Assembly: GCA_022821445.1 (NCBI GenBank)
Contig: JAJEDQ010000105.1
Span: forward strand, 1 to 34,012
Source: Acidimicrobiia bacterium
Lineage (GTDB): Bacteria > Actinomycetota > Acidimicrobiia > Acidimicrobiales > Bin134
Length of the DNA stretch: 34,012 nucleotides
Direction of reading: 5' to 3'
Position 1 is the stretch's first letter, and each line of letters opens with the position of its first letter. A model generated the notes under the pieces. The model saw nothing but the letters and a program-made list of their open reading frames with translations, was not told the origin of the DNA and did not search any database. Position numbers and translations under genes: made by a program. Positions 4,218 through 33,157 of the stretch are shown piece by piece.

Positions 4218-6584
4218 TCAGGAGGAACCCCCTATCCACACTTGATGGTGGATAGGGGTACCGTCTTGAAGTTGGTCATTTCGCGGCAAGGTAACCAGAA
4301 GCCGCACAGCACTGGGAGAATGAACATTCGGGGTAGGTATACTGTTGACTTCTAAGAGCTCCATTGAATCAGTACTTACCTGATATACGTCCGTAAATGG
4401 CTGCAACATCTCAACATCCACTACTCGCCCATTAGAATCAAATGTAGCGACATATGCCTTCAATTCTGAAATATATTGATTTCTAATTATAGTACGGAGG
4501 CTCGGGTGAGAGTCAGGCACTTCGATTTCGGTGTGGTATTCGTAGAAGTAGCTATTCTCCGTTTCAATTGCGGAGTCCATAACCGCAATTTCCGGGTAAG
4601 TTGCTAAAAACTTCTCAATTGATAAATGCAGTGGGACAATAGGACGGAAAGTCGCATAGACACCAGGAATACCCAGATCCGAAAGATAATAGAAAGAATT
4701 CTTTGTTGGATTGTATAGTACCGGCCCCACAGGACCTCCGACCGTTCCAACATTACTTAGGAGTACTTGGAATGCTCTAGATACATCTATAATATCACTC
4801 ATCAATGCAGACACAATTATTGATAAGCCCTCAGGATTCTGAGTGTCGTTGGAAATAGGAATTTCAAATGGGGCTCTTTCCCCTGGCTGTATAGTCAACG
4901 GCCACCGCCAGACCATTACCACATTTTCGTCCCAAGAATAGCGAAAGCCAACTTCCACATTTCGGGCATATCTATAGCTCGAGGTATTGTGAATCAAACC
5001 TCTCAGTACTCCGTTGGTGATATGAACCGTATCATGGTCGACTGCAATCGGACCCTGACCAACATTTGAATTGACCATGCTAAAAACAGATGACACAACT
5101 CCGTCTACTGCTTCTTCGCCTGCACTAGGCGAAGATTCAAAAGCATCAAATACACCAAAGTAACCCATTGGAGTACCTGTTTCAACAAAAGTATCTGAAC
5201 CCAATTCTGATGTCTTCAAGTATACATTGGTCCAAGTAAGCCCGCCTGTCCGAGGGTCACAAGGTGCTGATTTGACCCCATCTCGTGACACATCTTCAAA
5301 GCCATTGAAAGTCGTTTCCTGATATGACCATGGGTTAACGTTATTAGCATCCCCAATCCACAAAAAGGCTCTTCGGTTAGGGAGAAACTGAAATTCTCTG
5401 TCGTCGGGTGTCGTCGCTGGCACTAATGAAAGGATATTGAACTGTTCAGTAGGGTATCCAGAACTAACGGACAGAGGTTCACCTATATGCCCACCAACTG
5501 GGATCATAGTATAGTCCTTATTCTCTTCATCTATTCGCCTATGTTCTTCCATTACGAAGGGAAGTAACTCCCTAACATCAATTACGCGATCCTCCTGCAA
5601 AGATCCATTATCAACCCGTTCAATAATTGCCTGATATACTCGTATATCTTCGAAGACGATCTCTTCGCTAGGACTACTACCAATATCAATTTCTGAGGGA
5701 ACGTAGTGTACTTCAGAAAATAACGGCCCTTCCCAAATAGAGATAGCCGCGCCAATGTCGTCACTCGCCATGAATTCTCGCGGATACAAGGCATCAAACT
5801 GATTCTGATGAATCAAGACATGACTGCGAGGCAACCTATGTCTAATATCTGTACCACGCAAAGCGTAAAAGTTATTTCGAAATATATGCCAGAAAGGATA
5901 ATATTTATTGTTGCCATAATTGCGCTGGGTCTCGTCATAGTTTTTGGAAAACGCCCGACTGGGATCTGGCACTTCCGTCCCTTCAGCAGATATTTCAAAT
6001 TCTACGAAATCAGTCCATATTTCGGGTTCACCAAACCAGGAGTAAGGAGAAGTAGTGGGCCATTCTATAGTAATTTCAAAAGGTGCGGCTTCCCCAGGTC
6101 TAAGAGTCAAAGGCCATCGCCATTCAATACTAGCACCCTTATCCGGGGAGCTAGCCACGATCGACACGTCGCGGGCATACCAAATGTCTGATGTGTTCTC
6201 CACTAAACCTCTGACCACACAGTCTTTATAGGACAACGAAGTTTGTACCAAATCAAGCCATGGCTCAGAATACTTTACAACCGGTTGATCAGCTACCTGG
6301 GCGGAACTCTCTAGAATATGTGTCTGAGAAGAGCTATCGATCGCGCTATTCGACGGAGAATATGTCAAACTAGAGGCCGACCCAGTCGAACTCTTATAAG
6401 ATTGTGATGCTATTCCAGAGTTTAAGACTCCTTCGACTACTTCCAACGTTGGGTCGACAATGATGTTAGGTCGTACAATTGGTGATTTATCCGAAACTTC
6501 TTCAATACCACTGCCGCAAGCACTGAGAACTACTACGATTACGACTGCAAGTCCTAGAATATGACATCTCTTGGCGAAGCACAT
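4218..6584 (-). CDS. Large lipoprotein with an internal tandem duplication (function unknown)
   Basis: I chose ATG 6584 because it begins a signal peptide with a lipobox LSAC (Cys23); the open frame upstream encodes 30 residues with no signal character. The 788-residue protein is an exported lipoprotein. After a Ser/Thr-rich linker (about 25-110) it contains two versions of the same unit, roughly residues 112-412 and 510-787. Each unit begins with a strand-rich module, VRGLVENTS...WRWPLTLRPGEAAPFEI in the first and LRGLIHNTS...WRWPLTIQPGERAPFEI in the second, which recalls FxLYD-like domains. Each continues with SRAF, an NxFY segment, a (V)IDVxxLxPF-type motif and ends in FLWIGDA or QVWIGGS. 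No enzymatic motif is seen. The gene is AT-rich (22 of 60 G/C at 5881-5940) and lies 61 bases after the fibronectin-repeat gene on the same strand, so the two are probably co-transcribed. It is unlikely to be native to the surrounding chromosome. Confidence 0.85.
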   Translation of the reverse strand: MCFAKRCHILGLAVVIVVVLSACGSGIEEVSDKSPIVRPNIIVDPTLEVVEGVLNSGIASQSYKSSTGSASSLTYSPSNSAIDSSSQTHILESSAQVADQPVVKYSEPWLDLVQTSLSYKDCVVRGLVENTSDIWYARDVSIVASSPDKGASIEWRWPLTLRPGEAAPFEITIEWPTTSPYSWFGEPEIWTDFVEFEISAEGTEVPDPSRAFSKNYDETQRNYGNNKYYPFWHIFRNNFYALRGTDIRHRLPRSHVLIHQNQFDALYPREFMASDDIGAAISIWEGPLFSEVHYVPSEIDIGSSPSEEIVFEDIRVYQAIIERVDNGSLQEDRVIDVRELLPFVMEEHRRIDEENKDYTMIPVGGHIGEPLSVSSGYPTEQFNILSLVPATTPDDREFQFLPNRRAFLWIGDANNVNPWSYQETTFNGFEDVSRDGVKSAPCDPRTGGLTWTNVYLKTSELGSDTFVETGTPMGYFGVFDAFESSPSAGEEAVDGVVSSVFSMVNSNVGQGPIAVDHDTVHITNGVLRGLIHNTSSYRYARNVEVGFRYSWDENVVMVWRWPLTIQPGERAPFEIPISNDTQNPEGLSIIVSALMSDIIDVSRAFQVLLSNVGTVGGPVGPVLYNPTKNSFYYLSDLGIPGVYATFRPIVPLHLSIEKFLATYPEIAVMDSAIETENSYFYEYHTEIEVPDSHPSLRTIIRNQYISELKAYVATFDSNGRVVDVEMLQPFTDVYQVSTDSMELLEVNSIPTPNVHSPSAVRLLVTLPRNDQLQDGTPIHHQVWIGGSS
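4229..4258. terminator. Perfect 11-bp inverted repeat between convergent genes
   Basis: CCCCTATCCAC at 4229-4239 pairs perfectly with GTGGATAGGGG at 4248-4258 around an 8-base loop. It lies inside the last codons of the reverse-strand lipoprotein gene and about 50 bases after the polyprenyl synthase stop, so it could end transcription of the forward gene. Neither side has a T-tract, so termination is an inference. It also sits at the left edge of the AT-rich block. Confidence 0.4.
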
Positions 6585-6645
6585 GGGCCATCTCGTTTGA
6601 AAATTCTGATGCAGCCTTCCAAATTCATGTAGATCGACTAACATG

Positions 6646-9600
6646 TCATACGTGTTCCCACCAGCAGAGTGCATGAGGTTGGTGAACGCCTGGAACTGTA
6701 CCGCAGTGCGCCAACTGGAGGCTGTGTCGAATTATATCCGAGCCGCTGCCTGCATAAGGAACAGAGTCATTAAACCAACCCGATATAATCTTATTCTCCC
6801 CACTGACATCTACCTGCATTTTAATTTTACCGAAAGGATAATAAGTCCCTTCAGCACAGTCTTCTGAATCACTTACCCTGTCCCCGCTTTCTGGAGTTTC
6901 ATCTCTTCCGGGGCTACAACGCACAACCTCATTCGGCATTACTGCCCGATATATGGTCGTTCCTGTTTCTACGACTTCAGAAGGCCACGACAGTATACCA
7001 GTAGTATAGGGCCATGATTTAGGCCATACTGCGTACTTGATCTTAGTCTTAGAGTCTGTAAAAGAAATGAAAGCCAACGGTAACGGAGTTGGTCCGGATT
7101 TGAAGTCGGGCTCGGTAGCACCTTTTGGAATTTGACCACTCTTGTCATAGGTGACCATAGCTCCTTCTGCTGCTTCCGGATTGTACAGGTAGCAAGACAT
7201 GGGCACTTTATCAGAACTCCAACGGCACTGACGTTCAGTCACACCGCCATCGACTTGCTTCAGTCCCGCAACACGGACAATGTTTAGTTTGTCTGACTCA
7301 GAATCATAGATTTCAGAGAGATAGGTATTATAGCATCTATCAGACATATTATTTTTGTCGCAACCATGCCACTTATTATTTAGAGCTGCCTTCAATGCAC
7401 CTACGCTTGTGCATAATTGTCCTAGAAGATAATCGGCTATATACACGCCACCATTTGTAATATCCGCTCGCTGAGCATGATTTAGATGTTTCGTGGTGTC
7501 AAATGGGTCTATCTGCCAGAGTCCCACCCCTGGAGCCCAATGAGCCCGCAGATTATCTGCTTCAGTCATGTGGGAAAAAAGTCTAATATTGAGACTTTTT
7601 AGTTCACTTGTCTTATCGTTGTCGCTCTTGGCGTCTCTCTGTAAGAACTGAGACAAGTTATCCCAACGAGACAAGGTCATAGGGGACCGGGCATTTCCTT
7701 CTTCTCTAATCAAATCTATTTCATGCACTGGGATGGACAGCATTATTGCCGCCAATTGGTTTCTTGTTGGCATCGCTGCTGCACACCCTTTTCTATTCAT
7801 TATTGCTTCATCAGCAGCGTAGAGGACTCCCTTTATTGTTCCGTCTGTGAAGTGGTACTTTCCGGTGCCTGATAACACGTCACCGGGTACCTTTGAGAGC
7901 GTTTTCATCTTGGTTTTACAGGTGGAGTCTTGTGACCAGCCTTGGGGATTCCAAGCTTGGACTGCGATGTCGTAGGTCTTTCCTTCTGCGAGGCCAGAGA
8001 AGGTGTAGGCGGTTGAGTTTGTGATGATCCACTCGCGGTCGGTTTGGGTGCTGTCGAGGGTTATGCGGTAGCGGTCGGCCCCGTTGGGCTCCCAGCGGAT
8101 TGTCCCGTCGACGTCGGCTGCCTGGGGGCAGGGGGCGAGCACCGGACTGCTCGGTTTCGTGTGGCAGTGGGGGAACGGAGTGCGCGCCTCCCATGCGTCG
8201 GTGCTCGCCATCCGGCGCTCAACGGCGAACCAATACCTGGTTTGGTCGTCTAGCCCGGAGAATGTTGTACGAGTGTTATCGCCTTTTGCAATAGTTCTGG
8301 TTTCGGCATACTGGTTGATGCCGGTGATACGGGCTATTCGCCACTCGTATTCTTTGTCGGCGTCGTCCCAGGCCAGTGTGACGCTGGTGGCGGTGGTGGC
8401 TTCGCAGCGGGTGGGGGACGCGTCGTGGCCGGCTGTGACCGGTGCGCTGTCGTTGCCCTGGTGGTCCACCGCCCGGAGCTGCACGGTGTACCGGGTGCCG
8501 GGCGTGCGTTCGGTGAAGGTGTGGAACGTTCCGGTGGAAACCACCGTCTCCCAGGCCTGCTCGCCCTGGCCGCCGTTTTGGCCGGCGGTGCCGGACGCGC
8601 CCGCCGGGCTGATCTGGACTTGGTAGCGCTGGGCGCCGTCTACGGGTTCCCATTGGATGGTTATGGTGTTGCCGCCGGTGGTGTGCCCGGTCAGCACTGG
8701 GGTGTCGAGGTGTTTGGTGTAGCAGCGGGAAGCGGGGTTCACTTTGTGCCATTTCTCGTCTTTTCCGTACCACCACAGGTGGATCTCGTACTCTGAGCCT
8801 CTGGCCAGGCCGGTGAACTCGGTGTGGCTCTCCGTGTACTCGGTTCGGGGATCGGTCCAAGAGCTGCCAGTCCAGATGGCCGCGTACCAGTACTGGGCCT
8901 CGTCTATAGGCGCCCATTCCAGCACCACGCTGTCAGATGTGGTCTGATCGCAGTCCACCCCCGCCGCCGCGGTCGCGCACCGGACTTGCGCGACGTTCCC
9001 CCAGCCCTTCTCGCCGCCCGACTGCACGGTGACGGTGTGCATCGTGCCCGCGGCCAGCCCGGCGAACACATGGGTAACGCTGGGCGCATGGGGGTCAGGC
9101 TCGATATCGTCCGACCAGGCCCCGCCGCCGACCCTCGCCCGGTACTTGGCGGCCCCGACAACCTTCGGCCACGACACCGACACGCTGTTCGAGGTCGCCG
9201 TACACGACAGGACCGGCGCCGCTATGTCGGCCAGGGTGGTGCAGTACACGCCCGCGAAGTGCTGGGCCCTGCCGCCCTTGACCGCCAGCACGCTCACCCA
9301 GTACCTCGTGGACGCAGCCAGACCGCCGAACACCACCGTCGTGGACACAGTGGCCATCTCGGTCTGCGCGCTGTTCGGCGCGGCCAACTGGACCTTCGCC
9401 GAATAGCCGTCCGCGCCCGCCACCGCATCCCAGGAAAACCTGATCCGGGAGGAAGTGGCCTCGCACTCCAAGCCCGTGGGCCCCGGCAAAACCGACGCCG
9501 CAGTCGCACAGCTCGCCGTGCCGGTCTGGCCCCAGCCCGCAGAGTTCCACCCCTGCACCCGCACCGTATAGGCGGTGGACTCCGCCAGATTCGAGAACAC

Positions 9601-10722
9601 GTGCGACAGCCCCGAAGCCGACGCCCACCCGCTGCCCCTCGACACCCGGTACCGGGACGCGCCCCTGACCGATTCCCAACTCGCCGTGATCGTGCTCGCC
9701 GTCGCAGTACAAGACACCACCGGCGCCGCAGGCGGCGCCGCCGTAGTGCACACCGCGCTGGGATGCACCTGGCTCCACACACCGGCAGGCGACGCCCGCC
9801 ACCAGAAAAAGAACGTATAGTCCACATTCGCCGCCAACCCGGTGAAAACCGTCGACAAAACCGACCCCGCCAACGCCCTGCCATCCACATACTGGCCGCC
9901 AGCGGTCGCCCGGCCCACATACCACTGATGCACCCGCGAATCGGCCCTCCACACCAGCTGAGCGCCGCTGCCCGACACCACACCACAGCTCGGCGGGCCC
10001 ACCGCCGTCGTGCAGTACACCCCCGAGTAATACTGGGCCACACCCCCCACATTCGAATGCACCCCGATGTAATACGTCGTAGAAGACGACAAACCCGAAA
10101 ACACCGCCGACGTCCCAAAAGTCGTCCTCACCGTCTGGCCACCCTGCCCCGACCCCAACTGCAACTTCGCCGTATACCCATCAGCCCCCGACACCGCATT
10201 CCACGAGAACACGATCACCGAAGCCGTCACCGAACACGACAACCCCGTCGGCCCCGGCAAATACTGCGAGTTGCCGCACGCATGTTCCCCGGCGCACATC
10301 GCCAAACCCCCGAACCCCTCAGGCGCAGCACCCCCCACCGCCTCCACCTCAACCGGCGCCTCCAAAAAACCGCCCCCGAACACCTCCGCCACCGGACCCG
10401 CCACCCCCACCTGGCCCGAAACCGGACCATGCGCCCCCGACAAATCCAAACGGCCCAAACCCTCGTCCAACGGGCCATCCAAAGGAGGCGAACCCGTCTC
10501 CGCCACAACCCCCACAAAACCATCCTCTGCGCCACCCAAAACCCCATCAACCTGCCCCGCCACCAACCCGCCCCCAACACCCGAAGGAGGCTCAACCCCA
10601 ACCGGCAAACCCACCCCAGACTGCGCCCCAACAGGCACCCCCAACCCAACCGACACCAACAACCACACCAACACCACAACCAGCAAACGCCTCGCCGAAA
10701 ACGCGCTAGAACTCCTACCCAT
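6646..10722 (-). CDS. Secreted fibronectin type III repeat protein with lysozyme-like C-terminal region
   Basis: ATG 10722 is the only plausible start; an in-frame TAA lies four codons upstream. Residues 1-34 form a signal peptide (Arg-Arg, hydrophobic core, VGAQS), with no lipobox. A Gly/Val-rich linker (35-155) is followed by nine fibronectin-III-like repeats at about 157-240, 241-327, 330-407, 412-495, 500-584, 588-669, 671-766, 768-855 and 857-938. Eight of the nine carry one Cys near each end. The C-terminal region (940-1358, ten Cys) contains PVHE (Glu1001), GVGLWQID (1065-1072) and a following helix-rich segment, a layout recalling goose-type lysozyme/SLT transglycosylases (catalytic Glu, then GLMQI-like motif). 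A peptidoglycan-cleaving tip on a repeat stalk is my inference. DNA for the C-terminal region is AT-rich (18 of 60 G/C at 7321-7380) while the stalk is GC-rich (38 of 60 at 9661-9720). No convincing promoter was seen upstream. Confidence 0.88.
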   Translation of the reverse strand: MGRSSSAFSARRLLVVVLVWLLVSVGLGVPVGAQSGVGLPVGVEPPSGVGGGLVAGQVDGVLGGAEDGFVGVVAETGSPPLDGPLDEGLGRLDLSGAHGPVSGQVGVAGPVAEVFGGGFLEAPVEVEAVGGAAPEGFGGLAMCAGEHACGNSQYLPGPTGLSCSVTASVIVFSWNAVSGADGYTAKLQLGSGQGGQTVRTTFGTSAVFSGLSSSTTYYIGVHSNVGGVAQYYSGVYCTTAVGPPSCGVVSGSGAQLVWRADSRVHQWYVGRATAGGQYVDGRALAGSVLSTVFTGLAANVDYTFFFWWRASPAGVWSQVHPSAVCTTAAPPAAPVVSCTATASTITASWESVRGASRYRVSRGSGWASASGLSHVFSNLAESTAYTVRVQGWNSAGWGQTGTASCATAASVLPGPTGLECEATSSRIRFSWDAVAGADGYSAKVQLAAPNSAQTEMATVSTTVVFGGLAASTRYWVSVLAVKGGRAQHFAGVYCTTLADIAAPVLSCTATSNSVSVSWPKVVGAAKYRARVGGGAWSDDIEPDPHAPSVTHVFAGLAAGTMHTVTVQSGGEKGWGNVAQVRCATAAAGVDCDQTTSDSVVLEWAPIDEAQYWYAAIWTGSSWTDPRTEYTESHTEFTGLARGSEYEIHLWWYGKDEKWHKVNPASRCYTKHLDTPVLTGHTTGGNTITIQWEPVDGAQRYQVQISPAGASGTAGQNGGQGEQAWETVVSTGTFHTFTERTPGTRYTVQLRAVDHQGNDSAPVTAGHDASPTRCEATTATSVTLAWDDADKEYEWRIARITGINQYAETRTIAKGDNTRTTFSGLDDQTRYWFAVERRMASTDAWEARTPFPHCHTKPSSPVLAPCPQAADVDGTIRWEPNGADRYRITLDSTQTDREWIITNSTAYTFSGLAEGKTYDIAVQAWNPQGWSQDSTCKTKMKTLSKVPGDVLSGTGKYHFTDGTIKGVLYAADEAIMNRKGCAAAMPTRNQLAAIMLSIPVHEIDLIREEGNARSPMTLSRWDNLSQFLQRDAKSDNDKTSELKSLNIRLFSHMTEADNLRAHWAPGVGLWQIDPFDTTKHLNHAQRADITNGGVYIADYLLGQLCTSVGALKAALNNKWHGCDKNNMSDRCYNTYLSEIYDSESDKLNIVRVAGLKQVDGGVTERQCRWSSDKVPMSCYLYNPEAAEGAMVTYDKSGQIPKGATEPDFKSGPTPLPLAFISFTDSKTKIKYAVWPKSWPYTTGILSWPSEVVETGTTIYRAVMPNEVVRCSPGRDETPESGDRVSDSEDCAEGTYYPFGKIKMQVDVSGENKIISGWFNDSVPYAGSGSDIIRHSLQLAHCGTVPGVHQPHALCWWEHV

Positions 10723-24808: not shown

Positions 24809-25870
24809 TCAGATTTGGGCTTCGCGGGGGTCCCAGCGCTCGCGGGCCTTGTCGCCCACCCGGTTGAGGGCGAACACGGTCATGAACATCACGATGCCGG
24901 GCACGAACACCAAGTGGGGATGGTCCTTGTAGTTCTCCTGGCCCGCCTCGATCATGTTGCCCCACGTTGGTTCAGGGGGCTGGATCCCCACGCCCAGGAA
25001 GCTGAGGGAGGCCTCAGCCACTATCAGCACCGCGGTCACCAAGAAGGCATACGAAACCATGGGCAGCGCCACGTTGGGCATCAGCTCCCGAAAAATGACG
25101 CGCCGGTCCCCCGACCCCATGGACTTGGCGGCCAAAACAAACTCCCGCTGGGCGAAGGTCAATGTGTTGGCCCGAGCCAATCGTATGTAGGTCGGGATGC
25201 CCAACAGGGACAGTTCCAGCGCCATGGTCCATTGGTTCTGGGTGAATATCGTGGCCATCGCCACCAGCAGGATCAGCGGAGGAAAGGCCAGCAGGGAGTC
25301 GGCCATAATCCCGACCCCGCTGTCAAAGGGGCCCCGGTAATAGCCCGCCGCGATTCCGATAATCCCCCCGATCAACAAGCCGATGGCCACCGCCCCCAGG
25401 CTGATGATCAGAGACGTGCGCGCCCCCCACATCACCCCGCCCAATATGTCGAGCGCTTGGGAATTGGTTCCGAGGGGATGTTCAGAGAAGAGATCGGGCC
25501 GAAGGCGCGGGGTGTCGCCTATCGTGTTCTTCACCAACTTGGACTCTTGCAGCGGCAGCCAAGCCACAGTTATGGCCGAAAGCCCAATGAGCACCAGCCA
25601 GAACCCCGACAGCCACGCCGAGGTGTCGAAGCTAGATCCCCAGCTCCTCTGACAAAGCGCGTCTAGGCCGAAGTATCCGCCCACGATCCCCGCCAGCACC
25701 AGGGCGACCCTGATCTCGGCGGTCACATCGTTGAGCACCATGGTGCCCACGAAAATCACCGCAATGCCGATGGGCAGCAGCGGCCAGAGCCAGAAAGGCC
25801 GGGGCTCGGCGCTGCGAGCTCGAACCTCAGCCTCGCCTAGGGCGATTGTGTCATTCGTCGTCTCAGACAC
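24809..25870 (-). CDS. ABC transporter permease, DppC/OppC type (cassette 1)
   Basis: This is the second membrane subunit of a peptide/nickel-type importer. The conserved core begins near HPLGTNSQALDILGGVMWGARTSL (residue 131), and the EAA loop that docks on the ATPase lies near 246-266 (LAAKSMGSGDRRVIFRELMP). With 353 residues it is longer than the usual 290-310, because the N-terminal part has extra hydrophobic segments (about 29-46, 54-72 and 87-105) instead of a single helix. The start is GTG 25870, overlapping the permease B gene by eight bases. It closely resembles the cassette 2 copy at 28996-30072. No ATPase gene follows; the next gene is a convergent toxin. Confidence 0.95.
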   Translation of the reverse strand: MSETTNDTIALGEAEVRARSAEPRPFWLWPLLPIGIAVIFVGTMVLNDVTAEIRVALVLAGIVGGYFGLDALCQRSWGSSFDTSAWLSGFWLVLIGLSAITVAWLPLQESKLVKNTIGDTPRLRPDLFSEHPLGTNSQALDILGGVMWGARTSLIISLGAVAIGLLIGGIIGIAAGYYRGPFDSGVGIMADSLLAFPPLILLVAMATIFTQNQWTMALELSLLGIPTYIRLARANTLTFAQREFVLAAKSMGSGDRRVIFRELMPNVALPMVSYAFLVTAVLIVAEASLSFLGVGIQPPEPTWGNMIEAGQENYKDHPHLVFVPGIVMFMTVFALNRVGDKARERWDPREAQI

Positions 25871-26990
25871 GGCCCCGCCTGATCCTGGGATCGAGGTACT
25901 GGTAGGAGATGTCGATGATGGCGTTCAGCATCACGTAGCCCACGGCCAGCACAAGCACACCGCCTTGCACGATGGTGTAGTTCTTGGGGATCACCCCGGT
26001 GCCCACGATCAGCTTGCCCAGCCCCTCCAGGCCGAAGATGGTCTCGATGATGACCGTTCCGCCGATGAGCCGGCCCAGCGTGATTCCGGCCACGGTGATG
26101 AGAGAGAACGACGACGGCCGCAGCGCGTCGCGGAACAAGATCCGCCATGTGGGCATGCCCTTGGCCCGAGCGGACAGCACAAACTGCTCCTGAAGGGTCG
26201 ACAGCATGTCGGCCCTCAACAGCCGGGTGAACACCGCGATCTCGCTCAAGGCCAGGGCCAGCGCGGGCAAAAACAGCGAGCGAATCTGCTCACGCCAGTT
26301 GTCGTCGTAGCGGTGAGAGGCCGTGCGGGGGAAGTCGGGCCACTGGACGAACACCCACATCATGAGACCGGCCACCACCAGCGTGGCAATGGCGTACCCG
26401 AACCACCCCGAGAGGTCGGCGCGGTCTTCGGCCAATCGGCTGATGGCCAGATAGAGCAACCGCAAAACGATCAGTCCCATGCCGATGACCCAAATCCAAC
26501 GGGGGATGGATTCGCGGAATACGAAGAAGAAGATGAACAGCAGGCCGGCCAAGAACGTGGGGACCGAGATGAAGCCGAACATGGTGCCGCTCACCAACCG
26601 GTCGACCCGAGTTCCAGCCGCCTGAGCCGACCAGACCCCCAAGAAGATGGCGGTGGTGAACGACATTCCCAATGCCATGGCCGACAAGCGCAACGTGGGC
26701 CCAACGCTGCGCTGGATCAGGTCGGTGACCGGCTCATTGGGGGACCGCAACGACAGACCCAAATCGCCGCTCAGCGCACCGCTCAGCCAGTCCACGTAAC
26801 GGTCGGTGATCGGCTTGTCCAGCCCCAGCGACTTTCTGACCGCCTCTAGATCCTCGAGAGTGGCATCAGTGCCCAGCATATTGGCGGCCGGGTCGCCGGG
26901 AATCAGATCGACCAGGAAGAAGGTGGCCAAAGAAACGAGGAAGAGCACCGGCACGAGCCGGATCAGCTTCAAGCCGATCACCCGTAGCAC
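25863..26990 (-). CDS. ABC transporter permease, DppB/OppB type (cassette 1)
   Basis: This is the first membrane subunit of the importer. The N-terminal helix with VPVLFLVSLATFFLVDLIPGDPA is typical, as are the GFISVPTFLAGLL helix, the EAA loop SARAKGMPTWRILFRDAL (273-290) and the C-terminal MLNAIIDISYQYLDPRIR. At 375 residues it exceeds the usual 305-340. The excess is an insertion at about 163-235 with two hydrophobic segments, also present in the cassette 2 copy. It starts 53 bases after the binding-protein gene and overlaps the permease C gene by eight bases, so the three form one operon. Confidence 0.95.
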   Translation of the reverse strand: MLRVIGLKLIRLVPVLFLVSLATFFLVDLIPGDPAANMLGTDATLEDLEAVRKSLGLDKPITDRYVDWLSGALSGDLGLSLRSPNEPVTDLIQRSVGPTLRLSAMALGMSFTTAIFLGVWSAQAAGTRVDRLVSGTMFGFISVPTFLAGLLFIFFFVFRESIPRWIWVIGMGLIVLRLLYLAISRLAEDRADLSGWFGYAIATLVVAGLMMWVFVQWPDFPRTASHRYDDNWREQIRSLFLPALALALSEIAVFTRLLRADMLSTLQEQFVLSARAKGMPTWRILFRDALRPSSFSLITVAGITLGRLIGGTVIIETIFGLEGLGKLIVGTGVIPKNYTIVQGGVLVLAVGYVMLNAIIDISYQYLDPRIRRGRV

Positions 26991-27043
26991 GGTGCTCTTC
27001 CCCGCTTTAGAGCTTCAGTTGCTCAGCAATGCTCCCTTCGAGA

Positions 27044-28894
27044 TCAGTTCTCGATATAGGCGTTGCCGAACAGGAAGATGGTGGCGCCAGCCCGCTGGAC
27101 GCCCTTGATGTTCGGGGCGAGTGCCAAGCCCTCCTCGGTCACCGAGTAGACCATGGCGGGCAGATGCTCTGCCCACACGCACTGCACGGCTGCAATTGCG
27201 GCCCGCTGGTCATCCACGTTCGCCGCTCCGTAGAGCTCGCCCAGCGCGGCGTCCATGTCCGGGTGGGCGAAAGCCATCCGGTTGGAGCCGCTGGTGGACA
27301 GGAGGTTGTCGTTGAGCGACGCCACCCAAGTGGCACCGTCGGCGTTGAAGCCCCAACCGGCCATCTCGTAGTCGGCCTGGATGATGACCCTGGGAATCAG
27401 CACGGTTGTGACGGGACCGAGGTCCACCTCAATATCGAAGCCGGCGGCCTCCAGCATTCCCTCTACCGCCTGGGCGATCTCGGGTCCGGGATCTGTGTCG
27501 GCGTGGACCAGCAACATGGAGCCGTCCCAGCCAGTGTCAGCCTTCACCTCTTCAACCAGCGCCGCGGCGGCATCGGGATCGTAGCTCGGTGCCTGATCGG
27601 CGCATTCCTGCAACTCGGGCGACCACAGCAAGGTGCCCTCAGCAGCAATGGCGTTGGTGGTCTTGAGCTTGCCCTCGAAGGCCCGCTCGTTGATGATGTC
27701 CCGGTTGATGGCGTGGTGGACGGCCCGGCGGATTCTGATGTCCTTGCCGATCACATCGGCACCACGGACGCCCTGGTTGAACAGGAACAGCCCGCCGATG
27801 TTCTGATCCTCAGAGCTCAGAATTGCACCGGCCTCCCGAGCGTCGGCGAACACCCGGGGATCACGCAGGAAGGCGGCGTTGAAGTCGCCGGCCTGGAATG
27901 CCTCCCAGTTGGCCACCGAGCTGCCCGGCCAGGTGAACTCGATCTCCTCGATGCACACCGGGCCGCCCCAGTAGTTGTCTCGGGCCCGCAGCACGGTTCG
28001 CACGTTGGGCTCCACCTCGGCCACCTCATAGGGTCCGAAGCTGGCTGCGTTGACCAGTTCGGGGGTCACCGCCATCCGGTTGCGCACCAGTCGGGCTGCG
28101 CTGGTTTCCTCGGTGGCGTTGGCCGCCTCTTCGTCCAGAAGCTGGGCGATGATGCGCGGGTTCACGATCATGCCGGGCTCGTCGCCCAACAGCGTATGGA
28201 AGGTGCTCCACCCTCGATGGAGTCGGAATATCACGGTGCTGTCATCGGGGACTTCGGTGCTGTCGAAGTCGATGAGGGCCACCGATCCAGCCGCACGGTT
28301 AGTCATGCCGTCGCCGCGGGAGTCGAAGAACCGGAGCATCGAGTCGACCACGTCTTGGGCAATGAACGCATCGCCGTTGCCGTAGGTGATGCCCGAGCGG
28401 ATCTTCAGCGTCCACTCGGTGAAGTCGTCGTTGGGGGTCAGCGACTCAGCGGCCTGGCCGTTGGATACGCCAGCCGCGGGGTCGAACGCCATCAACACGT
28501 CCCACACGTTCACAATCTGGGTTCCGCCTACCAAGGCGCCGCTGCTGCCGGTCGGATCCATGTTGGCGTTGGGCGAGTACACCGCGTAGTTGACCTTGGT
28601 GCCCGGCACTGTGGCTTCGCAGCCATCCATCATCTCCTCTGATGCGGAAGGCTCGTCGCCATCGTCGGCGGCCGGCGCCGGCTCATCGTCGCCATCGTCG
28701 GCGGCCGGCGCGGGCTCATCGTCGCCATCGTCGGCGGCCGGCGCGGGCTCATCGTCGCCATCACCAGACGGCGCGGCGGGTGCGGACTCGTCTGGCCCGG
28801 CGGTCACCCCGTCATCGTCGTCGTTGCCGCAGGCCGCGGCCACCAGACCGAAAACCATAAGCAGCGCCAAGAGCTTGAAAAGCCAGGAATGCAT
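27044..28894 (-). CDS. ABC transporter substrate-binding lipoprotein, SBP family 5 (cassette 1)
   Basis: The 616-residue protein is a lipid-anchored binding protein that presents a ligand to the permeases. A signal peptide ends in a VAAAC lipobox (Cys22), followed by an acidic Asp/Glu-Pro-Ala linker (about 23-88) made largely of an 11-residue repeat, then the solute-binding domain. Features of the family include the early SLTPNDDFTEWTLKIRSGI region, the DNYWGGP motif and the C-terminal lobe ending in a hydrophobic strand. The ligand (peptide, nickel or another compound) cannot be told from sequence. ATG 28894 has AGGGGG nearby upstream, and a good promoter lies at 28927-28955. It is paralogous to the protein at 31298-33094. 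Confidence 0.95.
   Translation of the reverse strand: MHSWLFKLLALLMVFGLVAAACGNDDDDGVTAGPDESAPAAPSGDGDDEPAPAADDGDDEPAPAADDGDDEPAPAADDGDEPSASEEMMDGCEATVPGTKVNYAVYSPNANMDPTGSSGALVGGTQIVNVWDVLMAFDPAAGVSNGQAAESLTPNDDFTEWTLKIRSGITYGNGDAFIAQDVVDSMLRFFDSRGDGMTNRAAGSVALIDFDSTEVPDDSTVIFRLHRGWSTFHTLLGDEPGMIVNPRIIAQLLDEEAANATEETSAARLVRNRMAVTPELVNAASFGPYEVAEVEPNVRTVLRARDNYWGGPVCIEEIEFTWPGSSVANWEAFQAGDFNAAFLRDPRVFADAREAGAILSSEDQNIGGLFLFNQGVRGADVIGKDIRIRRAVHHAINRDIINERAFEGKLKTTNAIAAEGTLLWSPELQECADQAPSYDPDAAAALVEEVKADTGWDGSMLLVHADTDPGPEIAQAVEGMLEAAGFDIEVDLGPVTTVLIPRVIIQADYEMAGWGFNADGATWVASLNDNLLSTSGSNRMAFAHPDMDAALGELYGAANVDDQRAAIAAVQCVWAEHLPAMVYSVTEEGLALAPNIKGVQRAGATIFLFGNAYIEN
28650..28762. repeat. 33-bp tandem repeat in the binding-protein linker
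   Basis: A 33-base unit occurs as a 30-base variant (28650-28679), two full identical copies (28680-28712 and 28713-28745) and a 17-base partial copy (to 28762). It encodes the DDGDDEPAPAA linker repeat between the lipid anchor and the binding domain. The frame is preserved, so copy number can change without breaking the protein. Confidence 0.9.
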
Positions 28895-28926
28895 GTCACT
28901 TCCCCCTCATGGATTGTGGTGCCGAC

Positions 28927-28955
28927 ACTCTAGGAAAGCTCCGCTCAGGGGGCAA
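28927..28955 (-). promoter_or_regulatory. Promoter of cassette 1 (TTGCCC-17-TAGAGT)
   Basis: On the reverse strand TTGCCC (28950-28955) and TAGAGT (28927-28932) are separated by exactly 17 bases and lie 33 bases before the binding-protein start. The same two hexamers with the same spacing precede the paralogous cassette 2, which strongly supports function. The pattern fits the housekeeping sigma factor. Confidence 0.65.
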
Positions 28956-28995
28956 CTGATTCCGCCGCCCTCAATACAGGCAACAAAGCCGAGAG

Positions 28996-30072
28996 CTAGA
29001 GATTCGCTTGTCGGGGGTCCCAGAGCTCGCGGGCCTTCTCTCCCACACGGTTGAGCGCAAACACGGTGAGGAACATGGCGATGCCGGGCGCGAAGACGAG
29101 GTGGGGGTGCCGGTCGAAGTCGTCTTGTCCGGCCGCGATCATGTTGCCCCATGTGGGGTCGGGTCGCTGGATGCCCAAGCCGAGGAAGCTCAACGAGGCC
29201 TCGGCCACGATCAACACCGCGATGATGATGAAGGCATAGCTGAAGATGGGCAGGGCCACGTTGGGCACCAGTTCTTTGAAGATGATGCGGCGCCGGGTTG
29301 ATCCCATGGCCTGGGAAGCCAGCACAAACTCCCGTTCGGCAAACACCATGGTGTTCACCCGGGCCAGGCGGATGTAGGTGGGAATCCCCAGCACGGCAAG
29401 GGCGATGGCCATATTGCGGGGGCTGCGGTCCATCACGCTGGCCAACGCCAGCAACAGGATCAGCGGCGGAAAGGCCAGCAGCGAGTCGACAAACACCCCG
29501 ACGCCGGTGTCCAGCTTGCCCCGGAAGAACCCGGCCACCACACCGATGGTACCGCCCACCAATATCCCGATGGCCACGGCCAGCACGCTGACTTGCAGCG
29601 ACACCCGGGCCCCGTAGATGATGCCTCCGAGAACGTCGAGGGCCTGGCGGTCGGTTCCCAGCGGATGGGCCGATAGCAGGTCCGGCCGCTTCAGGGTGGG
29701 CGTGCCGTCGAAAATCGTGGCCGAGGCATCTTTGGCCTCGGAGATGGGCAGGAAGTCGGCGAACGCGGCCGAGAGCCCAACAATGGCCACCCAAAAGACC
29801 GACAGCCACAGCCCGGTCTCGAACCGCGACCCACAGACGAGCTTCCCCGCGCTGTCGAGGGCCATGAACAGCAGCACCAGCCCTCCCACGGTCAGCACCA
29901 CCCGGTAGCCGGCGTTCGCGTCGGTCAGCACCATCAGACCGATGACGATGGCGGCCACTCCGCCGATCAGCCCCACCGCCAAGCGCACCAAGCGCTGCGC
30001 GTGGGTGAGGGGGTCCACCAGTTCGCCGGCCACATAGCCGCTGTCGAGCGCAAGCCCAGTGTCAGCGGCCAC
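28996..30072 (-). CDS. ABC transporter permease, DppC/OppC type (cassette 2)
   Basis: This 358-residue membrane protein is the paralogue of the cassette 1 permease C. The core starts at about HPLGTDRQALDVLGGIIYGARVSL and contains the EAA loop LASQAMGSTRRRIIFKELVPN. It ends with FALNRVGEKARELWDPRQ, nearly the same as the other copy. The N-terminus again has several extra hydrophobic segments before the core. The start is GTG 30072, overlapping the permease B gene by 11 bases. After its stop, a spacer of about 100 bases carries the promoter of cassette 1. Confidence 0.95.
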   Translation of the reverse strand: MAADTGLALDSGYVAGELVDPLTHAQRLVRLAVGLIGGVAAIVIGLMVLTDANAGYRVVLTVGGLVLLFMALDSAGKLVCGSRFETGLWLSVFWVAIVGLSAAFADFLPISEAKDASATIFDGTPTLKRPDLLSAHPLGTDRQALDVLGGIIYGARVSLQVSVLAVAIGILVGGTIGVVAGFFRGKLDTGVGVFVDSLLAFPPLILLLALASVMDRSPRNMAIALAVLGIPTYIRLARVNTMVFAEREFVLASQAMGSTRRRIIFKELVPNVALPIFSYAFIIIAVLIVAEASLSFLGLGIQRPDPTWGNMIAAGQDDFDRHPHLVFAPGIAMFLTVFALNRVGEKARELWDPRQANL

Positions 30073-31183
30073 GTCGCAACCTCGGGTCCAGATAGCTGTA
30101 AGAGATGTCGATGGCGCCGTTCAACACCACATAGAAAGTGGCCAGGATGAGCACGCCGCCCTGCACTACGGGGAAGTCACCGGTGTTCACCCCGTCGTTC
30201 ACGATCAAGCTGCCCATGCCGGGCAGGCGGAAGATAGACTCCACGATAACGGTCCCGCCGATCAGGCGACCGAAGGCCACACCCGCCAGGGTGATGAGCG
30301 AGAACGACGACGGACGAAGCGCGTCTCGAGCCAGGATCCGCACCGGCGGCATCCCCTTGGCCCGGGCCGACAAGATGAAATCCTCTTGGAGGGTTGCCTG
30401 CATATCGCCGCGCAAGAGCCTCATGAACACCGCTATCTCCGTGAGGGCGACCGTGACCGCGGGCAGAAATGCGCTGCGGAAGTTCTCGAGTCTGCCTTCA
30501 TCAGACGTCCAACGCACGAATCCCTGGCGGGGGAACGAAGGCCACTTGTTGGCCAGCCAAACCGTCAGCCCGGCCACAACGATGGCCGCCGCCGCCCTCA
30601 AGAGCATCCCCCGCGCCTGGTCGTGCCGGTTCAGCACCGCGCTCCACAGCAGCCACAGCGACCAGGCCAAACCCAAGATCAGCACCGCATAGCGGGGAAC
30701 GCTGGCGTGGAATACGAACATGAATACCAACAGCAAACCAGCCAAAAAGCTGGGGATGGAGATGATGCCGAATGCTGCTCCGCTGCTTACCCGGTCGAAA
30801 CGCGTCCCGGCTCGATACGCCGCCCATGATCCCAGCGGCACCGCAATGAGCAGGGCCATGGCCATTCCCATGAGAGATATCTGGATGGTGACTGGGAAGG
30901 TCTGCTTGAGCCTGTCGGCCACCTTGACCCCGGGACGGGTGATCTGCTCCCCGAAGTCTCCTTGGAAGATGCTGCCCAGCCAGTCGAAATAGCGGGAAAC
31001 CACGTTCTCGTCGAGGCCTAGCTCCTTCTCGATGCGCTCGTAGTCGCCCGGCTCCCCCTCCATGCCGATGATGGCCAAGATGGGATCGCCGGGGACCAGT
31101 TCGATGAGTAGCGAGGTGGCCAAGCTGACGATGATCAGCACCGGTACGAGCCGGACCAGTTTAAGCCCGATGGTGCGCAGCAC
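30062..31183 (-). CDS. ABC transporter permease, DppB/OppB type (cassette 2)
   Basis: This 373-residue permease is the paralogue of the cassette 1 permease B, with the same opening (MLRTIGLKLVRLVPVLIIV), the same EAA loop type (SARAKGMPPVRILARDAL), and the same ending around ISYSYLDPRLRRGR. It also carries the extra central insertion with two hydrophobic segments between PRYAVLILG and RSAFLPAVTVAL. It starts 114 bases after the binding-protein gene, a gap that contains a hairpin, and overlaps permease C by 11 bases. Confidence 0.95.
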   Translation of the reverse strand: MLRTIGLKLVRLVPVLIIVSLATSLLIELVPGDPILAIIGMEGEPGDYERIEKELGLDENVVSRYFDWLGSIFQGDFGEQITRPGVKVADRLKQTFPVTIQISLMGMAMALLIAVPLGSWAAYRAGTRFDRVSSGAAFGIISIPSFLAGLLLVFMFVFHASVPRYAVLILGLAWSLWLLWSAVLNRHDQARGMLLRAAAAIVVAGLTVWLANKWPSFPRQGFVRWTSDEGRLENFRSAFLPAVTVALTEIAVFMRLLRGDMQATLQEDFILSARAKGMPPVRILARDALRPSSFSLITLAGVAFGRLIGGTVIVESIFRLPGMGSLIVNDGVNTGDFPVVQGGVLILATFYVVLNGAIDISYSYLDPRLRRGR

Positions 31184-31258
31184 GCCTGCTCAACCCCCTT
31201 CCCAGGTGATCGTGATCGGGACCATCGGCTGTCGCCTAGGTCCGGTGGTGGAGTGCCA

Positions 31259-31285
31259 GCCCGCCAAACCGAGTGCTCGGCGGGC
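31259..31285 (-). terminator. Intercistronic hairpin after binding protein 2
   Basis: GCCCGCC (31259-31265) pairs with GGCGGGC (31279-31285), and inside it CGAG/CTCG can pair further. It begins 12 bases after the stop of the binding-protein gene and has no T-tract. Such hairpins can partly stop transcription or protect the upstream mRNA, so binding protein is made in excess over permease. The role is inferred. Confidence 0.45.
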
Positions 31286-31297
31286 CGGTCAGTCCAA

Positions 31298-33094
31298 TCA
31301 GCCCTGGTCGAGGTAAGCGTCGTGGAACAGCAAGGAGCTTGCCTGGCTTCCCACAATCCCCTTCACATGGGGCTTCCAGATGAAGAACTCCTCGATGGTC
31401 TCATAGATGGCGCTGGGCCAGCTCTGCTGCCAGACCGACCAGATCTCGGCCAGAGCGGCCTGGATCTCGTCATTGTTGGTGGCCACTTGGAGCTTGTCCA
31501 AAGCAGCATCCATGTTGGGATCGGCGTAGCCGATACGGTTGTTGCCCGCATCCGAGCGGAACTGGAGCACGGGGATGAATGGCGTTTCATCGGACACGTT
31601 GAATCCCCAGCAGGCCAGATCGAAATCGGCGTTCACCAGCACGATTCCGATCAAGTCCAAGATGGTGCCGTCGTTATCCACCTCCACTTCGAACCCGGCC
31701 GCTTCCAGGAGGGCTTCTGCCGCGATGGCCCAGTCGATGCGGCTGGGCGCGTTGTGGCAGGCCAGCCTGATTGTGCCGTCCCAACCGGTCTCGTCCTTGA
31801 CCTCTTGCACCAGGGCTCGGGCCCGCTCGAGGTTGGGCTGAATCGGGGCGAACAACTCCTCGTCCCAGTAGATCGAATCGGTGGAGAGCAGGGAGGCCCC
31901 GGGCTTGCCGAGACCCTCGTTTGCCCGCTGGTCCATCACCGCCGGATCCACGGACAGGGCGATGGCCTCACGCAGCCGCACATCAGTGGTGGGAGGCGTT
32001 GATCCCCTGACGCCGTTGTTCACGAACACGACGCCGCCCGCGTTCTGCAAGAACACATGGCCGTTGGCGCCTTCGCCGTCTTCTCGGGCTTCGGAGATCA
32101 CCCGGGGCTCACGCAGGAACGCCACCTGGATCTCGTCGTTCTTGTAGGCCTCGTAGGTGGCCGGGGCACCGGGAATGCGGATGAAGCGAACGGTCTCGAT
32201 GCACACCGGCCCGCCCCAGTAGTCATCCTTGGCGGTGACCACGATCTCCTCGCCCGGCGCGTAGCGCTCGATGTTGTAGGGGCCGAGGCCGGCGTTCACC
32301 GGGTTGAGGTTGAACTCCTCGTTGCCGATGGCCTCCACAACGGTCGGGTTGACCATCATGCCCGTCTCGTCGGAAAGGGCGTACGGGAACGTTCCCCATG
32401 GACGGTCCAGATGGAAGACCATGTTGAGGTCGTCGATGATCTCGAACTCCTCAATCCAGGCCACATAGGCGCGGCCCTGGTTGCGCCCGCCCTCGCGCAG
32501 GAACCGCTCCATGGTGAATTGAACCACTGAGGTGTCCAGAGGCGTGCCGTCGGGAAAGGCTATGTCCGGACGCAGCGTGAGGGTCCACTCGGTCAGGTCG
32601 TCGTTGGACGAGAACGACTCAGCCAAGTGGGGCACGTACTCCTTGTTGATCTGGTCGTAGATCACCAGCACGTCGTACAGGGTGGCCAACTCGATCATGC
32701 CGGTGGTTCCAGAGCCGGAGGACACCGTTGGGTCTAGTCCCGCGGTCTCCGAGAAGATGCCCATGGTGATCTCCGAGCCCGGCACCGTGGCGTCGCAATT
32801 GTCCATCATCTCGCTGTCCGCCGGCGCGGCGATACCGCCGTCGTCGTCATCTGCGGGTGCCGGCGCCGCATCGTCATCCGCGCCGTCGTCGTCATCTGCG
32901 GGTGCCGGCGCCGCATCATCGTCGGCGCCGTCGTCGTCATCTGCGGGTGCCGGCGCCGCATCATCGTCGGCTTGGGCGGGTGCCGGCTCATCGGGGCCGG
33001 CGGTCACCCCTTCATCGTCGTCGTTGCCGCAGGCCGCGGCCACCAGGCCGAACGCCAGCATCAGGGCCAGCAACTTCAAGAACCATGAACGCAT
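31298..33094 (-). CDS. ABC transporter substrate-binding lipoprotein, SBP family 5 (cassette 2)
   Basis: I chose ATG 33094, which has a strong purine-rich ribosome binding site (GGAGGGGGAG) and yields a clean signal peptide with VAAAC lipobox (Cys22), 598 residues. An ATG at 33130 would add 12 charged residues and would overlap the promoter. An acidic linker made of a 15-residue repeat (about 30-90) precedes the solute-binding domain, with SSNDDLTEWTLTLRPDI, DDYWGGPVCIE and FLREPRV motifs shared with the cassette 1 protein. The two binding proteins are clearly related but differ in much of the ligand-binding half, so they may bind different ligands. The ligand is unknown. Confidence 0.95.
   Translation of the reverse strand: MRSWFLKLLALMLAFGLVAAACGNDDDEGVTAGPDEPAPAQADDDAAPAPADDDDGADDDAAPAPADDDDGADDDAAPAPADDDDGGIAAPADSEMMDNCDATVPGSEITMGIFSETAGLDPTVSSGSGTTGMIELATLYDVLVIYDQINKEYVPHLAESFSSNDDLTEWTLTLRPDIAFPDGTPLDTSVVQFTMERFLREGGRNQGRAYVAWIEEFEIIDDLNMVFHLDRPWGTFPYALSDETGMMVNPTVVEAIGNEEFNLNPVNAGLGPYNIERYAPGEEIVVTAKDDYWGGPVCIETVRFIRIPGAPATYEAYKNDEIQVAFLREPRVISEAREDGEGANGHVFLQNAGGVVFVNNGVRGSTPPTTDVRLREAIALSVDPAVMDQRANEGLGKPGASLLSTDSIYWDEELFAPIQPNLERARALVQEVKDETGWDGTIRLACHNAPSRIDWAIAAEALLEAAGFEVEVDNDGTILDLIGIVLVNADFDLACWGFNVSDETPFIPVLQFRSDAGNNRIGYADPNMDAALDKLQVATNNDEIQAALAEIWSVWQQSWPSAIYETIEEFFIWKPHVKGIVGSQASSLLFHDAYLDQG
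32838..32971. repeat. 45-bp tandem repeat in the second binding-protein linker
   Basis: Copies lie at 32838-32882, 32883-32927 and 32928-32971 (last copy one base short of a full match). They encode an Asp-rich unit of the type DDDGADDDAAPAPA. The unit differs in length and sequence from the 33-base repeat in the paralogue, at the same place in the protein. Confidence 0.9.
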
Positions 33095-33128
33095 GGATTT
33101 TCTCCCCCTCCTGCAAGTTGGTTCCGAC

Positions 33129-33157
33129 ACTCTATGGAACCCACCACGTCAGGGCAA
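33129..33157 (-). promoter_or_regulatory. Promoter of cassette 2 (TTGCCC-17-TAGAGT)
   Basis: On the reverse strand TTGCCC (33152-33157) and TAGAGT (33129-33134) are 17 bases apart, 35 bases before the binding-protein ATG. Both hexamers, the spacing and the GTCGG just after the -10 are the same as at cassette 1. Confidence 0.65.

What the first reader, a model, noticed from the sequence alone, without database searches (positions are those of the whole stretch)
4218..6250. Lipoprotein made of two diverged copies of a roughly 300-residue unit
Seen: residues 112-412 and 510-787 align along their length: VRGLVENTS/LRGLIHNTS, WRWPLTLRPGEAAPFEI/WRWPLTIQPGERAPFEI, SRAF/SRAF, NNFYAL/NSFYYL, VIDVRELLPF/VVDVEMLQPF and LWIGDA/VWIGGS. 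The order of blocks is the same. Inference: an ancient internal duplication of an unnamed exported module with an FxLYD-like start. I know of no described family with this full arrangement.
Basis: seen in the sequence. Interest (0 to 1): 0.6.

Follow-up and report, generated by a model that had tools for sequence, protein, structure and literature searches.

The report
Two-unit lipoprotein paired with secreted-protein tip
In a little-known group of bacteria, a membrane-anchored protein built from two diverged copies of one unit travels as a swappable package with the business end of a large secreted protein, and it looks like the part that shields the cell from that secreted protein, though this has not been tested.

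Summary
The 818-codon ORF at 4218-6674 (-) encodes a lipoprotein whose halves align at E 2e-16; profiles of 14 relatives per half align over 260 columns at E 2.4e-38. Each half forms one clade, so the doubling happened once. No Pfam, NCBIfam or PADLOC model matches.

Directly upstream lies a secreted FN3-repeat protein with an unnamed ~400-residue C-terminal tip. All 25 such tips with readable downstream sequence are followed by a one- or two-unit lipoprotein gene. In two-unit loci tip and lipoprotein form a low-GC block (46/44% against 66-68%). Shafts stay 57-82% identical while synonymous sites in tip and lipoprotein are saturated: an exchanged module. Of 25 lipoprotein genes in the genus, ten have an intact enzyme gene, ten intact ones lack it or have it broken; the reverse was not seen.

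Best reading: immunity or inhibitor lipoprotein of a polymorphic-toxin-like system. Wall-cutting by the tip is motif-based only: SLT membership was tested and not met, the structure job failed, and unrelated tips on the shaft were not found. Protection is untested.

The parts
4218..6674 (-). Two-unit lipoprotein gene (818 codons from the first ATG; likely start at the ATG at 6584)
6516..6584 (-). Lipoprotein signal peptide with lipobox LSAC; Cys to be acylated = ORF residue 53
5346..6272 (-). Unit 1 (one clade, 100/98 support); carries the conserved Cys of DCVVRG
5049..5345 (-). Linker with a CD..GGL ... GYFG motif resembling the N-domain of one-unit relatives (hhalign E 0.002, probability only 14%)
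4221..5048 (-). Unit 2 (one clade, 98/95 support; groups with the one-unit proteins)
7867..10722 (-). Shaft of the partner: Sec-type signal (by eye) and FN3 repeats, 66% GC, 63-82% identical to the shafts of L037, L044, L041 and L047 and 57% to L036
6649..7866 (-). C-terminal tip domain of the partner: unnamed, about 46% GC, invariant E in MLxIPxxE, SPMxLxRxDN-like and VGxWQxD motifs
6646..6674 (-). Overlap between the partner gene's end and the lipoprotein ORF's first ATG; the genes abut or overlap in the other paired loci too

Best explanation
The protein is the cognate immunity or inhibitor lipoprotein of the tip domain of the FN3-shafted secreted protein encoded directly upstream. Tip and lipoprotein travel together as one low-GC module that is joined to a conserved shaft, as toxin tips and immunity genes do in polymorphic toxin systems. 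The lipoprotein sits on the outer face of the cell membrane and would bind and block tips, made by the cell itself or by siblings, before they damage the envelope. The two-unit form arose once, probably when tandem one-unit genes fused after loss of the tip gene between them. Shown here: the duplication, the pairing, the module exchange and the loss asymmetry. Inferred: binding, inhibition, the target (peptidoglycan) and the route of fusion.
For: Pairing: 25 of 25 tips whose downstream sequence could be read are followed directly by the lipoprotein gene. Module: GC drops from 66% (shaft) to 46% (tip) and 44.5% (lipoprotein), flanking genes 67-68%; the step lies at the tip boundary in 6 of 7 two-unit loci with a shaft, L047 being weak. 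Exchange: window-L044 shaft dS 0.27, tip pS 0.74, lipoprotein pS 0.82; window-L037 shaft dS 0.38, tip pS 0.79; lysS dS 0.17-0.21 between the same genomes. Asymmetry: of 25 lipoprotein genes, 10 intact ones have an absent or broken enzyme gene; no intact enzyme without lipoprotein was seen. Clean deletion of the enzyme in the window's orthologue. G015 and G020 carry the lipoprotein but no tip and no shaft hit. Purifying selection: dN/dS 0.37 window against orphan L034, 0.20 orphan L035 against L036.
Against: No unrelated alternative tip was found on the same shaft, only tip-less shafts (L146, L148). Distant relatives of the tip core in other families have no such lipoprotein nearby, 0 of 11 loci read of 27 genomes with such hits, so the domain can exist without it. 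The tip has no recognised fold: no Pfam or PDB match, SLT comparison negative, model pLDDT 32. The enzyme gene is about twice as long as the lipoprotein gene, which alone makes it the likelier one to break (rough chance of 10 to 0 at 2 to 1 is 0.017); some breaks may be MAG errors (the TGA in L036), and L054 has stops in both genes. No binding or protection was tested.
Confidence: 0.5

Rival explanations
1. Surface adaptor: the lipoprotein captures or positions the FN3-tip protein on the cell's own envelope, for wall remodelling or adhesion, and does not inhibit it.
For: Tight gene order and overlap; a lipoprotein and a secreted FN3 protein are a natural anchor and cargo; related tip cores elsewhere carry SLH or FG-GAP domains, which suggests envelope housekeeping.
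Against: Ten intact lipoproteins have no intact cis enzyme; G015 and G020 have no tip or shaft hit at all. An anchor should follow the shaft as well as the tip, yet the lipoprotein tracks the low-GC tip and not the shaft (the correlations rest on 6-7 loci).
Confidence: 0.28
2. Host-facing pair: FN3 protein and lipoprotein act on an animal host's cells or matrix rather than on bacteria.
For: FN3 repeats are often listed among eukaryote-like proteins of symbionts (recalled; only search listings seen).
Against: The source of the genomes was not established; the conserved part is tip plus lipoprotein, not the repeats, and the repeat type changes between families while the pairing stays.
Confidence: 0.1
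3. The lipoprotein is a general-purpose envelope protein, kept for its own sake, that is merely co-transferred with the tip.
For: Orphans under purifying selection.
Against: 25 of 25 tips are followed by it across four families, and distances of tip and unit correlate (r 0.83, n 18, 0 of 5000 permutations), though co-inheritance along the species tree also gives this.
Confidence: 0.08

Closest known systems
Polymorphic toxin systems, in particular TANFOR proteins of Bacteroidetes (PMC7073777; passages read)
   Same: Large secreted proteins, often with Fn3 repeats, C-terminal effector domain, cognate immunity gene directly downstream and highly diverged
   Different: There many unrelated toxin domains sit behind one N-terminal domain; here one tip family only, in Acidimicrobiia, and the candidate immunity protein is a large lipoprotein, in one clade built of two units
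Lysozyme-inhibitor lipoproteins (MliC/PliC, SliC, LprI; abstracts in the search listing)
   Same: Membrane-anchored protein that would block a wall-cutting enzyme
   Different: No Pfam match; encoded with its presumed target rather than against a host lysozyme
Effector-immunity pairs with peptidoglycan hydrolases, e.g. T6SS of Acinetobacter baumannii (PMC6833914; passages read)
   Same: Peptidoglycan-directed effector with cognate immunity gene
   Different: None of the window genes scanned around the pair matched a secretion-system family (eight genes scanned); delivery would be by Sec and a repeat shaft
SLT / GH23 lytic transglycosylases (PF01464)
   Same: Motif order in the tip (Glu, later GxGxWQxD) resembles theirs by eye
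   Different: Profile comparison gives probability 0.1-0.2%; no Pfam hit

Membership tests
Polymorphic toxin system | Conserved delivery region with a diverging C-terminal effector region | tested here: met
   Window against five loci: shaft 57-82%, tip 45-53% identity; tip synonymous sites saturated, shaft dS 0.27-0.69 in three of four pairs and 1.81 in L047
Polymorphic toxin system | Unrelated effector domains on the same delivery region | tested here: not met
   Shaft search in 22 genus genomes: tips of one family or no tip among the loci read; several end at contig edges
Polymorphic toxin system | Cognate gene directly downstream, with orphan copies | tested here: met
Polymorphic toxin system | Downstream protein neutralises the effector | not testable with these tools
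   needs expression and binding tests
SLT lytic transglycosylase (PF01464) | Profile-level similarity over the catalytic core | tested here: not met
   probability 0.1% (tip plus distant core) and 0.2% (distant core), negative control 0.3%; Pfam scan of 12 tips: one chance-level hit to an unrelated family
FxLYD domain family | Match to a Pfam model | tested here: not met
   0 families for the window's unit 2 at E up to 10; three chance-level families among the 14 members
Ig-like beta-sandwich (first ~83 residues of the unit) | Predicted or solved fold | tested here: inconclusive
   Six strands at block pLDDT 55-78 (residues 1-80), whole model 39.8; Foldseek best E 9e-4, most hits weak with large rmsd
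MliC/PliC/LprI lysozyme inhibitors | Match to a Pfam or NCBIfam model | tested here: not met
   0 families for the lipoprotein

The most novel reading that the evidence does not exclude
A new polymorphic-toxin-like class in Acidimicrobiia: Sec-exported FN3-shafted proteins with exchangeable envelope-damaging tips of an unrecognised fold, whose immunity lipoproteins pile up as orphans and tandem copies and have fused into two-unit proteins that guard against two tip types at once.
Probability: 0.33. Interest if true: 0.78.

Novelty: new variant of a known kind. Interest (0 to 1): 0.62.

Why it matters
If true, it adds a conflict system to a bacterial class for which the searches made here listed no paper on such a system, gives a function to a lipoprotein family and a tip domain that none of the libraries searched names, and offers natural snapshots (scar, remnants, tandem genes, fusion) of how immunity genes become orphans and then fuse into possibly multi-specific proteins.

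Tried and rejected
Chance similarity of the halves: rejected. SLT identity of the tip: rejected as membership. Solved-structure relatives by sequence: none above chance for the lipoprotein or the tip. Viral contigs: three scans, no relative. G011 as a genome with lipoprotein and no enzyme: dropped, because a shaft ends at a contig edge there. Alternative tip on G012:C7 and G003:C21: dropped, both run off the contig. Wider spread: 3 of 296 class genomes and 2 of 296 phylum genomes match, the only one outside the order being G696 at E 2.4e-4. Tip against U1 or U2: correlations 0.44 and 0.52 on 7 loci do not say which unit faces the tip. L054 was left out of the distance tests (broken lipoprotein).

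Full report
The observation. The minus-strand ORF at 4218-6674 has 818 codons; the lipobox LSAC ends at residue 53, so the internal ATG at 6584 is the likely start. All six quoted block pairs occur in order. The two halves align by BLASTP at E 2e-16, 32% over 234 residues; the Smith-Waterman score of 181 compares with a mean of 37 and a maximum of 60 in 500 shuffles. Profiles of 14 first units and 14 second units align over 260 columns at E 2.4e-38, up to the closing WIG motif.

The family. Pfam, NCBIfam and PADLOC know neither the lipoprotein nor the partner's tip (for the partner Pfam finds FN3 and FN3-like domains). A search with the window protein in 99 genomes found matches in 11, all of them among the 22 genus genomes G000-G021. 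A profile of unit 2 found 18 of 397 genomes of the order: the same 11 and seven more from three other families. In 296 genomes of the class 3 match, and in 296 of the phylum 2, one of them outside the order and weak; these sets overlap with the earlier ones. Two-unit genes: 14 read, all in the genus, plus L043, cut at a contig edge. One-unit genes occur in the genus and are the only kind in the other three families. In a tree of 48 units, first units form one side of a branch (100/98), second units another (98/95), and second units lie with the one-unit proteins (rows L037-L039 are near-copies). So the two-unit form arose once, and unit 2 is the more ancestral type.

Anatomy. Every one of the 14 two-unit proteins has, besides the presumed lipid-bearing cysteine, one cysteine in the first strand of unit 1 and one in a C-rich motif (CD..GGL in the window) before unit 2; one-unit proteins have a pair, mostly 30-40 residues apart, in an N-terminal domain (several rows have more cysteines). 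The linker resembles that N-domain at hhalign E 0.002 but with a probability of only 14%, which suggests, no more, that two complete one-unit proteins fused. A regular expression finds a lipobox in 27 of 33 lipoproteins (the L079 hit, at residue 4, looks spurious); the other six have, by eye, a cysteine after a hydrophobic stretch in a less usual setting. A model of unit 2 from four rows is poor (mean pLDDT 39.8); its first 83 residues form six strands, and the best structural matches are beta domains with large deviations.

The neighbour. Directly upstream on the same strand, overlapping the ORF, is a 1358-residue protein with signal peptide (by eye), FN3 repeats and a C-terminal region of about 400 residues. 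In an alignment of 12 (A4) this region has invariant positions including the Glu of MLxIPxxE, SPMxLxRxDN-like and VGxWQxD motifs. Its resemblance to lysozyme-type enzymes is mine, by eye. A profile of SLT domains (20 loci taken, one row, L172, off target but kept) against tip plus distant cores gives probability 0.1%, no better than the lipoprotein control at 0.3%. I therefore call it the tip and do not file it as an SLT enzyme; below, enzyme gene means the whole shaft-plus-tip gene.

Pairing. In one search, 42 of 397 genomes of the order carry the tip or its core; at most four candidates per genome were scored. I read 25 tips (some of them broken) of the lipoprotein-bearing families with sequence left downstream; 25 of 25 are followed directly by the lipoprotein gene, one of these (G000:C162) by its start before the contig ends and one (G004:C16, L054) by a copy with a stop inside. 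G137:C40 is cut inside the tip. G009 adds one more pair, both genes cut. Outside the genus 8 of 9 loci have the tip gene directly upstream, with other kinds of shaft; the ninth ends at the contig edge. Against the reading, distant core relatives in other families have no such lipoprotein within the 3.4-14 kb read, 0 of 11 loci out of 27 genomes with such hits; of seven scanned, four carry FG-GAP or SLH domains.

Module exchange. In the window the lipoprotein is 44.5% GC (GC3 0.39) and the last 440 codons of the partner 46.4% (GC3 0.43), while the rest of the partner is 66.1% and flanking genes 67-68%. The step lies at the tip boundary in six of seven two-unit loci with a shaft (weak in L047) and is slight or absent in the one-unit loci measured. 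Between the window and L044 the shaft is 82% identical with dS 0.27, the tip 48% with pS 0.74 and the lipoprotein 31% with pS 0.82; with L037 the values are 77% and dS 0.38, 47% and pS 0.79, 36% and pS 0.80; L041 and L047 are less sharp (shaft dS 0.69 and 1.81). lysS of the same genomes has dS 0.17 (G003, which holds L044) and 0.21 (G019, which holds L037). Tip and lipoprotein thus have a history different from the shaft; homogenised shafts instead of exchanged tips would also give part of this. Over six loci shaft and tip distances do not correlate (-0.03), tip and unit 2 do modestly (0.43); over 18 pairs tip and unit correlate at 0.83. Six to seven loci are few.

Insertion site. In 11 genus genomes (L100, L102, L104-L112) lysS is followed directly by the prenyl synthase gene, with no room for the pair; L103 has another neighbour there, and two cut copies (L113, L114) say nothing. 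The pair is present there in the window and, as lipoprotein only, in G012. In that orthologue the lysS downstream flank joins the last codons of the partner gene, the rest being gone, and the lipoprotein ORF is open, 86% identical.

Asymmetry. Twenty-five lipoprotein genes were read in the window and genus loci L034-L055. Ten have an intact enzyme gene upstream: window, L037, L038, L041, L044, L047, L049 first copy, L050 plus strand (its lipoprotein reaches the contig end), L053, L055. Ten intact ones do not: L034 (deletion scar), L035, L046, L048 (nothing found), L036 (in-frame TGA), L039 (lost and shifted N-part), L040 (deletion through the tip core), L051 (transposase-like sequence, IS110 by eye, fused to the tip), L049 second copy and L050 minus strand (short tip remnants). 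L054 has stops in both genes. Four are undetermined at contig edges: L042, L043, L045, L052. An intact tip without lipoprotein was not seen; a decayed tip in G192 has none before the contig ends. With an enzyme gene about twice as long, 10 to 0 has a chance of roughly 0.017 (my arithmetic; the events are assumed independent). G015 and G020 have lipoproteins but no tip or shaft hit (completeness 94% and 89%). Orphans evolve under purifying selection: dN/dS 0.37 for window against L034 and 0.20 for L035 against L036, lysS 0.15; part of the divergence may predate the losses.

Mechanism and standing. A secreted protein whose tip and adjoining lipoprotein gene are exchanged together, tips not seen without the lipoprotein in these families, and many retained orphans: this is how toxin and immunity genes behave. 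I put 0.5 on an immunity or inhibitor role, 0.28 on an adaptor. It works like a polymorphic toxin system but is not filed as one, because unrelated tips on the same shaft, a defining feature, were looked for and not found: apart from shafts that run off the contig, the close shaft genes read carry this tip or, in L146 and L148, none. The tandem one-unit genes of L049 (with a tip remnant between) and L080 are plausible stages on the way to the fused form. TANFOR proteins (PMC7073777, passages) are the nearest published architecture found. Searches for FxLYD, for Acidimicrobi with polymorphic toxin, and for FN3 with transglycosylase or polymorphic toxin and immunity protein listed no paper whose title or abstract describes this system; that covers the held library only.

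Noticed in passing
24809-33130: Three neighbouring minus-strand genes (353, 375, 616 aa) are followed by a second set of the same families (358, 373, 610 aa): a tandem duplication of a three-gene block (clusters c27-c29).
   Followed up: no
L098:1334-2179 and L099 (G696, same phylum): A 281-aa lipoprotein weakly similar to the unit (E 2.4e-4) lies directly downstream of a protein with FG-GAP-like repeats (by eye) and a DHVHFS motif: possibly the same fold beside a different secreted protein.
   Followed up: partly
L084-L094: The tip's core is a wider unnamed domain of the order (invariant E, PMTLxRxD-like, WQxD-like motifs, conserved Cys), in some proteins fused to FG-GAP or SLH domains.
   Followed up: partly
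L146:2648-5245 and L148:3885-6464: FN3 shafts of the same family that end without a tip; L146 also has an in-frame TGA.
   Followed up: partly
L051:9092-10741: Transposase-like sequence (IS110 by eye, not searched) fused in frame to the tip of the partner gene; the lipoprotein downstream is open.
   Followed up: no
G006:C1 about 2496992-2501617, G014:C1 about 2290050-2293784: Very long FN3 arrays in ORFs of 2652 and 2368 aa in genus genomes without a match to the lipoprotein.
   Followed up: no
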